Shown here piece after piece: positions 46,021-64,000 of a stretch of 64,000 nt of DNA. The stretch is from contig CAMAWC010000002.1 of the NCBI GenBank assembly GCA_945861875.1, positions 25,766 to 89,765 on the forward strand, read 5' to 3'. Both the position numbers and the translations under genes were made by a program. Numbering within the stretch: position 1 is the stretch's first letter; every line of letters begins with the position of its first letter. The notes below the pieces were generated by a model that saw nothing but the letters and a program-made list of their open reading frames with translations, was not told the origin of the DNA and did not search any database. Origin of the DNA: Bordetella parapertussis. GTDB taxonomy: Bacteria; Pseudomonadota; Gammaproteobacteria; Burkholderiales; SG8-39.

Positions 46021-46143
46021 GTCATTCCGGGGCCGCGTAGCGGAACCCGGAACCCATGGGGTTCGTCGCTTCAGCACAAACCCAACCCCATGGATTCCCG
46101 CTCCCCGATTAAGGCATTCGAGGACAAGCTTCGCGGGAATGAC
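46021..46143. repeat. GTCATTCC...GGAATGAC palindromic intergenic element with long hairpin loop
   Basis: Terminal inverted GTCATTCC/GGGAATGAC; internal ATTCCCGC (46094-46101) and GCGGGAAT (46133-46140) around a 31-nt loop. Confidence 0.75.
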
Positions 46144-46956: not shown

Positions 46957-47002
46957 TTTCTGCTTTCGTAGTTCTTCAGATTTGAGGGAACCTCTAAAAA
47001 TT

Positions 47003-47081
47003 GTCATTCCGAGGCCGCAGGCCGAGGAATCTGCTTCGTGCTCCCCCTGAAAAGCAGATTCCTCGTTTCACTCGGAATGAC
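47003..47081. repeat. 79-bp palindromic element, copy A (right of SDR, 3' side of ubiA)
   Basis: GTCATTCCGAGGCCGCAGGCCGAGGAATCTGCTT...AAGCAGATTCCTCG...CGGAATGAC. Confidence 0.85.
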
Positions 47082-47106
47082 AAAATTCGGATTGTTAGCG
47101 ATGCCT

Positions 47107-47985
47107 TTAAATCCATTTCCTGCTTTCGTAGTTAAGAACAATGCCGGCGAATATCGCGGCACCCAGCCAGTTGTTGTGCACGAACGCCCTGAAGCAACCG
47201 TCACGGTCACGGCCGCGAATGAGCGTGTAGTGGTACAAGGCCATGCCGGCGGCCACCGCAAGGCCGGCGTAATAAAACAGGTTAAAGCGCAGCCGCCAGC
47301 CCACCCAGGTCATGACGGCGAACATCGCGGCGTAACTCAGCATCACCGCCACCACGTCCCAGCGGCCGAAGGTGATCGCCGAGGTGCGGATGCCGATTCT
47401 CAGGTCATCATCACGATCGACCATGGCGTATTCCGTGTCGTAGGCAATCGCCCAGAGGATGTTGGCGCCAAGCAGCACCCACGCAAACCAGTGCACCGCA
47501 CCGTTATTCGCGGCGAACGCCATCGGGATGCCAAAGCCGAAGGCGATGCCCAGGTAGGCCTGCGGCATGGCGAAAAAACGCTTCGCATAGGGATACGTCA
47601 TGGCGACGAACAGCGCGCCGAACGACCAGGCGATGGTCTGCCAGTTAAGAAGCAACACCAGCGAAAACGCCAGCAGCGCAAGGAACAAGGCCAGCAGCCG
47701 CGCCTCCTTGCGCGTCACCGTGCCCGCCGGCAGCGGCCGGTTGCGCGTGCGCTTCACATGGCGGTCGAACTCGACATCGACGCTGTCGTTCCAGACACAG
47801 CCGGCCGAGCGCATCAACAGGGTACCGAGGCAAAAAATGACCACCACCGCCCAATCAGGCCGGCCCCTCGCGCTGATCCACACCGCCCACAGCGTCGGCC
47901 ACAGCAGCAGCAGCGTGCCGATGGGCTTGTCGAGTCGCATCAGGCGCTCGTACTCGGTCAGGCGTTGCTTGATATCCATTTCCAA
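47107..47985 (-). CDS. ubiA: 4-hydroxybenzoate octaprenyltransferase
   Basis: [79 protein letters not shown]. Confidence 0.96.
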
Positions 47986-47998
47986 TAACCCCTAATCT

Positions 47999-48077
47999 GT
48001 CATTCCGGGCAAAGCGAGGAATCTGCTTTTCAGTGGCCGTAAAAAGCAGGTTCTTCGGCCTACGGCCTCAGAATGAC
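47999..48077. repeat. 79-bp palindromic element, copy B (5' side of ubiA), inverted relative to copy A
   Basis: Reverse complement aligns gaplessly to 47003-47081 with 14 mismatches out of 79 by eye. Confidence 0.85.
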
Positions 48078-48097
48078 AATGCTGGGAGGCCTTATTT

Positions 48098-48232
48098 AAG
48101 GAAGCTCTGATTAAGTCCATAAATCGTCATTCCCGCGAAAGCGGGAATCCATTTTGACTCAATGAATCCACGCTTTAGGTCAAGGTGGATTCCCGCTTTC
48201 GCGGGAATGACGGACTTAATCAGAGCTTCCTT
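48098..48232. repeat. About 135-bp imperfect palindrome with two ATTCCCGC-tetraloop-GCGGGAAT hairpins
   Basis: Outer arms AAGGAAGCTCTGATTAAGTCC / GGACTTAATCAGAGCTTCCTT; inner hairpins 48129-48148 (GAAA loop) and 48189-48208 (TTTC loop). Confidence 0.9.
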
Positions 48233-48280
48233 AATTCCGAAACGCAGTGGATTTTAGCCTGATACAGGCTCAGGCCCGCT

Positions 48281-53285: not shown

Positions 53286-53337
53286 CCGGAACGACGGCCG
53301 GCGCCGCGCTATAGCCAGGGTCAAAATGAATTCCCGC

Positions 53338-53421
53338 TTGGCCGTTCCTCGAAACTTCTTCTCGCTGCGCGAGACTCGTTTGGCCGTTCCTCGAAACTTC
53401 GTCTCGCTGCGCGAGACTCGT
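53338..53421 (-). repeat. Two tandem 42-bp units (hairpin-tip cassette), locus 1
   Basis: 53338-53379 and 53380-53421; one substitution between units (CTTCTTCTCG vs CTTCGTCTCG); flanked by ATTCCCGC (53330-53337) and TTTC-ACGGGGAT (53422-53433). Confidence 0.97.
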
Positions 53422-53622
53422 TTTCACGGGGATGACGACGCTGCGGTGCATGGGTGTTGCGTTGGGGCACGGGCTTTGCAGCGCCATCGCGGCCGAGTCG
53501 TGGGTTGGCAATCGGGTTGGAAATCGCCGGATGGGTGGCCGGATTCGTGATAAAAGAGCGGGTGTTCGCGTTGCTTTGGCTGAGGCGTGCCACAGCGCAC
53601 CCCGGCATGCCGGCTCAAGCCA

Positions 53623-53713
53623 TGCGCATCGCGCATCGGCGCATCGGCGCATCGGCGCATCGGCGCACCGGCGCACCGGCACACTGGCACACTGGCGCAC
53701 CGGCACACCGGCC
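53623..53713. repeat. 9-bp-period tandem repeat (CGGCGCATC/CGGCACACC), about 10 degenerate units
   Basis: catgcgcatcgcgcatcggcgcatcggcgcatcggcgcatcggcgcaccggcgcaccggcacactggcacactggcgcaccggcacaccgg. Confidence 0.92.
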
Positions 53714-63811: not shown

Positions 63812-64000
63812 GGGAAGCTCGGATTAAGTCCAGAAATCGTCATTCCCGCGAAAACGAGTCTCGCGCAGCGAGACGAAGTTTCGAGGAACGGCCAAACGAG
63901 TCTCGCGCAGCGAGACGAAGTTTCGAGGAACGGCCAAGCGGGAATCCATTTTGACTCAATGAATCCACGCTTTAGGTCAAGGTGGATTCCCGCTCCCCGA
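63812..64000. repeat. Palindromic element related to 48098-48232, carrying the 42-bp doublet in its left hairpin (runs to window end)
   Basis: GGGAAGCTCGGATTAAGTCC...ATTCCCGCGAAA-[42]x2-GCGGGAATCCATTTTGACTCAATGAATCCACGCTTTAGGTCAAGGTGGATTCCCGCTCCCCGA. Confidence 0.92.
63854..63937 (+). repeat. Two identical tandem 42-bp units (hairpin-tip cassette), locus 2
   Basis: ACGAGTCTCGCGCAGCGAGACGAAGTTTCGAGGAACGGCCAA twice (63854-63895, 63896-63937). Confidence 0.98.

What the first reader, a model, noticed from the sequence alone, without database searches (positions are those of the whole stretch)
63842..63945. 42-bp doublet inserted at the loop edge of a conserved ATTCCCGC-GAAA-GCGGGAAT hairpin
At 48129-48148 the element reads ATTCCCGC-GAAA-GCGGGAAT. 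At 63.8 kb the flanking sequence is nearly the same, and on the right side it is identical for more than 40 nt (GCGGGAATCCATTTTGACTCAATGAATCCACGCTTTAGGTCAAGGTGGATTCCCGC). There, exactly two 42-bp units sit between GAAA and GCGGG. This gives an empty-site versus filled-site comparison within one window. It suggests the hairpin tip is an insertion target or expansion point for a small cassette. I do not recognise this as a described mobile or repeat class; it could be known under a name I cannot recall.
Basis: partly seen in the sequence, partly recalled or inferred. Interest (0 to 1): 0.85.

Follow-up and report, generated by a model that had tools for sequence, protein, structure and literature searches.

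The report
Interchangeable hairpin-tip modules in bacterial repeats
The 42-letter unit is one of three kinds of small self-folding module that occupy the tip of a common repeated DNA hairpin in this bacterium and some relatives; this is an undescribed variant of a known repeat class and not, on present evidence, an independent jumping element.

Summary
At 63842-63945 two identical 42-bp units sit between GAAA and GCGGGAAT of an ATTCCCGC-GAAA-GCGGGAAT hairpin, and the empty version lies at 48129-48148. The hairpin is a CGTC-tagged REP (CGTC-1; called dRS3 in Neisseria). The genome holds 30 units (22 single, 4 doublets). All lie in one orientation inside this hairpin, none elsewhere. An unbiased search for any 14-44-nt loop insert gave 74 hits. 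All but one belong to three unrelated module classes, A (42 nt), B (27) and C (17-18), each a nested stem-loop at the same point, GAA^A. Modules A and B recur in other genera with conserved ends and changed inner hairpins that still pair; B also occurs in a second family. Loop class assorts with stem type and spacer type. Identical flanks carry empty or filled loops, so tips do change in place. Yet the modules never occur outside the hairpin, and no Y1 or IS110 transposase was found in this genome. Best reading: old tip modules that travel with REP copies and are sometimes swapped or gained at the tip. Published CGTC REPs have 4-5-nt loops, so this is a new variant of a known kind.

The parts
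63842..63849 (+). left stem arm ATTCCCGC of the filled CGTC REP hairpin (tag CGTC immediately before it)
63850..63853 (+). GAAA, the original tetraloop; in the filled form it can pair with TTTC/GTTT of the module
63854..63895 (+). module A, unit 1 (42 nt)
63896..63937 (+). module A, unit 2 (42 nt, identical to unit 1)
63938..63945 (+). right stem arm GCGGGAAT, followed by the CCA tail
63986..64000 (-). start of the partner arm of the head-to-head dimer; its loop begins as module B (TCCCCGA...) and is cut by the end of the contig
   Evidence: contig C94 carries the same sequence further
53330..53433 (-). second filled hairpin of the window: ATCCCCGT-GAAA-[two A units, 53338-53421]-GCGGGAAT; one unit carries AGAAG instead of ACGAAG
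48096..48234 (+). empty reference element: head-to-head CGTC REP dimer, both loops GAAA/TTTC (hairpins 48129-48148 and 48189-48208), outer inverted repeats
46094..46140 (-). CGTC REP hairpin with module B (GCTTGTCCTCGAATGCCTTAATCGGGG) in its loop
   Evidence: (G000:C2:71856-71902)

Best explanation
The 42-mer is a loop module of a CGTC-tagged REP (CGTC-1/dRS3 type), which here is organised mostly as head-to-head hairpin dimers with a spacer that is usually 40 nt. The 4-nt GAAA tip can be extended at one point, GAA^A, by one of three unrelated nested stem-loops: A (42 nt, once or twice), B (27 nt) or C (17-18 nt). The modules are old and are kept as structures: inner stem letters change while pairing holds, and junction letters are conserved. 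They multiply mainly because whole REP elements are copied. They also change in place, by swapping or gain of the tip between REP copies; I infer hairpin-provoked template switching at replication, using the 12-15 nt shared by all hairpins on each side. Doublets arise by tandem duplication inside the loop. Shown here: position, orientation, confinement, three classes, nested pairing, in-place differences, assortment with stem and spacer, spread across genera. Inferred: the exchange mechanism and any function. The likeliest function is that the extended tip makes a long-hairpin REP variant with a different substrate shape for whatever copies or cuts these hairpins; an RNA role is possible.
For: All 30 A units lie in the hairpin, one orientation. 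The generic insert search gives 74 hits: about 18 A, 42 B, 13 C, and 1 that is two juxtaposed REPs. Of 65 A/B/C loops, 62 begin GAA and end A (a few of these are from relatives). Loop class occurs with both stem types (ATTCCC, ATCCCC) and with at least four spacer types. Stem letters change in concert: 1 mismatch at the variable T-A/C-G pair in 147 hairpins. Arrays with near-identical flanks hold empty and filled loops. Module A recurs with different inner stems in G032, G034 and G093, and B in G034, G044, G047, G050, G087 and another family, G511 and G556. Pairing counts: A 94.8% of cells paired against 20-42% when slid, 17 double-changed cells against 4.9 in shuffles; B 97.4% paired. Folds are more stable than shuffles, z about -1.8 to -3.1.
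Against: No orthologous locus could be compared between close strains, so gain, loss and swap cannot be told apart, and the time scale is unknown. Shuffle controls ignore relatedness, and several A copies have an A-G or G-G mismatch in the inner stem (8 of 17 rows at pair 22-36). Template switching is not observed directly. The genome is a draft (93% complete, 208 contigs, contigs often ending in these repeats), so copy counts are approximate and a transposase could be missing.
Confidence: 0.55

Rival explanations
1. Pure REP subfamilies: the loop arose once per class, and each long-loop REP has since moved only as a whole hairpin or whole dimer. The loop was never exchanged; stem and spacer diversity arose by mutation and by insertion of hairpins next to different spacers.
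For: Fixed position and orientation of every copy; modules are old. The A/B dimer occurs at several genomic places with different outside sequence (contigs C2, C7, C61), so whole elements do move. Concerted stem changes could come from palindrome correction.
Against: Empty and filled loops occur with the same outer flank and the same spacer (window 48 kb against 63.8 kb; arrays on C80 and C21). Each loop class is spread over four spacer types.
Confidence: 0.27
2. Site-specific mini-cassette: 17-42-nt hairpin modules are inserted into the tip of extruded CGTC hairpins by a trans-acting enzyme that cuts single-stranded hairpin tips, without target duplication.
For: Three non-homologous modules at the same nucleotide, with no loss of loop letters. 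Precise empty and filled sites. The related dRS3 repeat is the integration site of the filamentous phage Nf with its own transposase (PMC4471427).
Against: No module A outside the hairpin (30/30). No Y1_Tnp and no IS110-type Transposase_20 in this genome. Y1 genes in relatives show no CGTC hairpin beside the gene, and Y1 presence does not follow module presence. No IS was seen in the sampled hairpins.
Confidence: 0.13
3. A functional RNA motif: the filled hairpins are transcribed at 3' ends of genes and bind a protein or tune mRNA decay or termination; selection on RNA structure keeps the inner stem paired.
For: Inner stems vary with pairing kept, conserved junction letters; the window copies are intergenic, downstream of genes. 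Published CGTC REPs are mostly downstream of genes (PMC3733652).
Against: No Rfam family matches convincingly. The same features serve a DNA hairpin equally well. No expression data.
Confidence: 0.05

Closest known systems
CGTC-1 REP family (Di Nocera et al. 2013, PMC3733652), including Neisseria dRS3
   Same: CGTC tag, 8-bp stem starting with AT, CCA tail, GAAA-type tetraloop in empty copies, head-to-head dimers predominant, no dedicated transposase
   Different: Published CGTC loops are 4-5 nt (their Table 1), with unusual loops set aside in pruning; here 21-46-nt (88 in doublets) nested stem-loops of three classes occupy the tip
GTAG REPs with long, self-complementary loops (GTAG-3, GTAG-14; PMC3733652) and 'long hairpin' REPs of TnpA-Y1/RAYT classes (PMC6006769)
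   Same: Short and long self-complementary loops coexist on one stem family
   Different: Those are GTAG-tagged and many are linked to RAYT genes; here the tag is CGTC, no Y1 transposase is found in the genome, and three unrelated loops share one insertion point
dRS3 as integration site of the filamentous phage Nf in Neisseria (summarised in PMC4471427)
   Same: A hairpin of this family serves as target for incoming DNA
   Different: Nf is a phage genome with its own transposase and a CT duplication; here the insert is 17-42 nt, non-coding, and no IS110-type transposase is found in the genome

Membership tests
CGTC-1 REP | unpaired CGTC (or TGTC) tag next to the stem | tested here: met
   CGTC or TGTC precedes the stem
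CGTC-1 REP | 8-bp stem beginning with AT, unpaired CCA tail | tested here: met
   ATTCCCGC/ATCCCCGC stems, CCA tail in nearly all
CGTC-1 REP | 4-nt loop | tested here: not met
   met by empty copies (GAAA 80 of 92) but not by A, B and C copies (21-88 nt); hence a variant of the family, not a plain member
CGTC-1 REP | head-to-head dimers predominate | tested here: met
   61 head-to-head pairs found in the fetched stretches, gap mostly 40 nt; other arrangements were not counted
RAYT-mobilised REP | Y1_Tnp gene in the genome, flanked by the REP | tested here: not met
   none in this genome; no CGTC hairpin next to the Y1 genes inspected in relatives (nearest about 1.3 kb away, plus one sequence match that is not a hairpin)
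IS110/Piv-driven insertion | IS110-type transposase present | tested here: not met
   no PF02371 match in this genome (PF01548 not searched)
autonomous or MITE-like mobile cassette (42-mer) | copies at sites other than the host hairpin, or target duplication | tested here: not met
   30 of 30 in the hairpin; no duplication beyond ambiguous A letters

The most novel reading that the evidence does not exclude
The tip of CGTC hairpins is a true site-specific insertion point for a class of 17-42-nt hairpin cassettes, moved in trans by an unidentified hairpin-tip nuclease/ligase; these would be among the smallest mobile DNA units known.
Probability: 0.12. Interest if true: 0.8.

Novelty: new variant of a known kind. 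Interest (0 to 1): 0.45.

Why it matters
CGTC REPs are widespread and have no known transposase. A lineage whose hairpin tips carry interchangeable, structurally conserved modules, in arrays where empty and filled copies sit side by side, gives a direct handle on how these repeats spread and what enzyme reads their tip. It also warns that surveys which discard REPs with unusual loops miss a real structured subset.

Tried and rejected
Rfam scan of the window and of the locus: no convincing family (weak microRNA-model matches are palindrome noise). Y1 transposase and IS110-type transposase in the own genome: none. Y1 genes of 30 loci from relatives: no adjacent CGTC hairpins. Viral contigs, phages and plasmids for module A: nothing; the generic pattern in viral contigs gave one B-like hairpin (L302), the rest unrelated. 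Module A tail in 386 other genomes of the class: none (exact-type pattern with 2 mismatches, so divergent versions could be missed). Protein coding: the unit is 14 codons without stops in one frame and small ORFs run through it, but the copies are intergenic and no gene is shared between them; rejected. Dimer asymmetry (never two copies of the same long loop in 61 dimers): about 2 homotypic pairs expected by chance (my arithmetic), so not significant. Left-half multiplications seen in other phyla look like ordinary slippage and are not the same thing.

Full report
Observation. The filled hairpin at 63842-63945 and the empty one at 48129-48148 differ by two 42-bp units placed between GAAA and GCGGGAAT. 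The 59 nt to the right are identical and 44 nt to the left are 93% identical. The window also holds a second doublet on the other strand at 53338-53421.

Genome-wide. The window is part of a 4.07-Mb draft genome in 208 contigs. Searching with the 42-mer gives 23 copies, and with its 22-nt core 30 copies, against no matches of the reversed control. I read the context of every copy. All lie between CCCGCGAAA (or a one- or two-letter variant) and the right arm (GCGGGAAT, GCGGGGAT or a near variant) of the same hairpin, always in the same direction. One copy is at a contig end and shows only the right side. There are four doublets and 22 singles, and none with three or more.

Three modules, one point. 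A pattern that allows any 14-44 nt between the arms gave 74 hits in this genome and none for the reversed pattern. Apart from one juxtaposition of two REPs they fall into three classes. A is the 42-mer (about 18 single-unit hits by this exact pattern). B is GCTTGTCCTCGAATGCCTTAATCGGGG (about 42 hits, many at contig ends, so possibly over-counted). C is TCCCACTCCGGGGACCAG or TACCCTCCGGGTACTAG (13). All fit an insertion at GAA^A with no loss of loop letters: 62 of 65 such loops begin GAA and end A (a few of those rows are from relatives). All three fold as nested stem-loops. In A the GAAA of the old loop can pair with TTTC of the module.

What the host hairpin is. The tag CGTC, the 8-bp stem beginning with AT, the CCA tail and head-to-head dimers define CGTC-1 REPs (PMC3733652). 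Neisseria dRS3 belongs to the same family. That survey gives CGTC loops as 4-5 nt, says unusual loops were discarded, and reports no linked transposase. In this genome 61 head-to-head dimers were parsed, mostly with a 40-nt gap whatever the loop. The partner arm is often a second hairpin with stem ATTCCGGG, whose loop is again a nested, co-varying hairpin and has its own long-tip variant.

Relatives. In 99 other genomes of the same family the generic pattern finds A in G032, G034 and G093, B in G034, G044, G047, G050 and G087, and a C-like loop in G037. B also occurs in another family of the order (G511, G556). Ends and junction letters are conserved while the inner hairpin differs: GTCTCGC-GCA-GCGAGAC here, GCCTTGC-GAA-GCAAGGC in G032, GGCC-GCA-GGCC in G034. 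Pair counts support the nested structures (A: 94.8% of cells paired, 17 double-changed cells against 4.9 in shuffles; B: 97.4%). The shuffle control does not account for relatedness, and one inner pair of A is often mismatched. In two B copies (G050 and viral-collection contig L302) the inner hairpin is almost the REP hairpin itself after a GTC, which hints that B began as a REP inside a REP (hypothesis).

How it changes. Every loop class occurs with both stem types and with several spacer types. The two arms of the stem change together: one mismatch at the variable pair in 147 hairpins. The tandem arrays on C80 and C21 hold units with the same left flank and similar right flank, some empty, some with one A, one with two. 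So the tip changes without disturbing its surroundings. Whether by insertion, loss or exchange cannot be decided without close strains. I favour exchange by template switching, because the shared sequence on each side is short (about 15 and 12 nt), hairpins stall replication, and module A was never found elsewhere. These are inferences from general knowledge, not results.

Machinery. No Y1_Tnp and no Transposase_20 match in this genome, with positive controls in reference genomes. Y1 genes are common in the family (65 of 100 genomes) but absent from this, the richest genome, and from G032, G034 and G044. Their loci carry no adjacent CGTC hairpin. The draft state of the genome limits these negatives.

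Verdict. A real, non-random and apparently undescribed variant of CGTC REPs: three interchangeable nested-hairpin modules at one tip position.

Noticed in passing
window 46991-47103 and 47977-48089: An inverted pair of another repeat family (GTCATTCTGAGGCC...GAAGAATCTGCTTTT type, 76% complementary over 113 nt).
   Followed up: no
window 53631-53712: Tandem array of the 8-mer GCGCACCG, about 10 copies, between the amino-acid permease gene and a response-regulator gene, close to the second doublet.
   Followed up: no
L174, L176, L177 and other own loci: Partner arm with stem ATTCCGGG carries loops such as GCCGCGCAGCGGAA and a long-tip variant GGCCGCTACGCGTCCCCCTCGGGGGACTTGCTTCGGCCGGAA: tip extension in a second REP type.
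   Followed up: partly
L082, L101, L117, L127, L130 (genome contigs): In other bacteria the left half of the CGTC hairpin plus some flank is multiplied in tandem, with the unit ending exactly at the loop's last A; looks like slippage on AAAGCG-type microhomology.
   Followed up: partly
L302 and G050:C189:129-170: Module B copies whose inner hairpin is nearly the REP hairpin itself (TCCTCGC-GAAA-GCGGGGA; TCCCCGC-GAA-CGCGGGGA), preceded by GTC: possible REP-in-REP origin.
   Followed up: no
G000 contig ends (for example C2, C20, C24, C27, C41, C88, C94): Many contigs of this draft end inside the B-bearing 135-bp dimer, so this element is a main cause of assembly breaks and its copy number is uncertain.
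   Followed up: no
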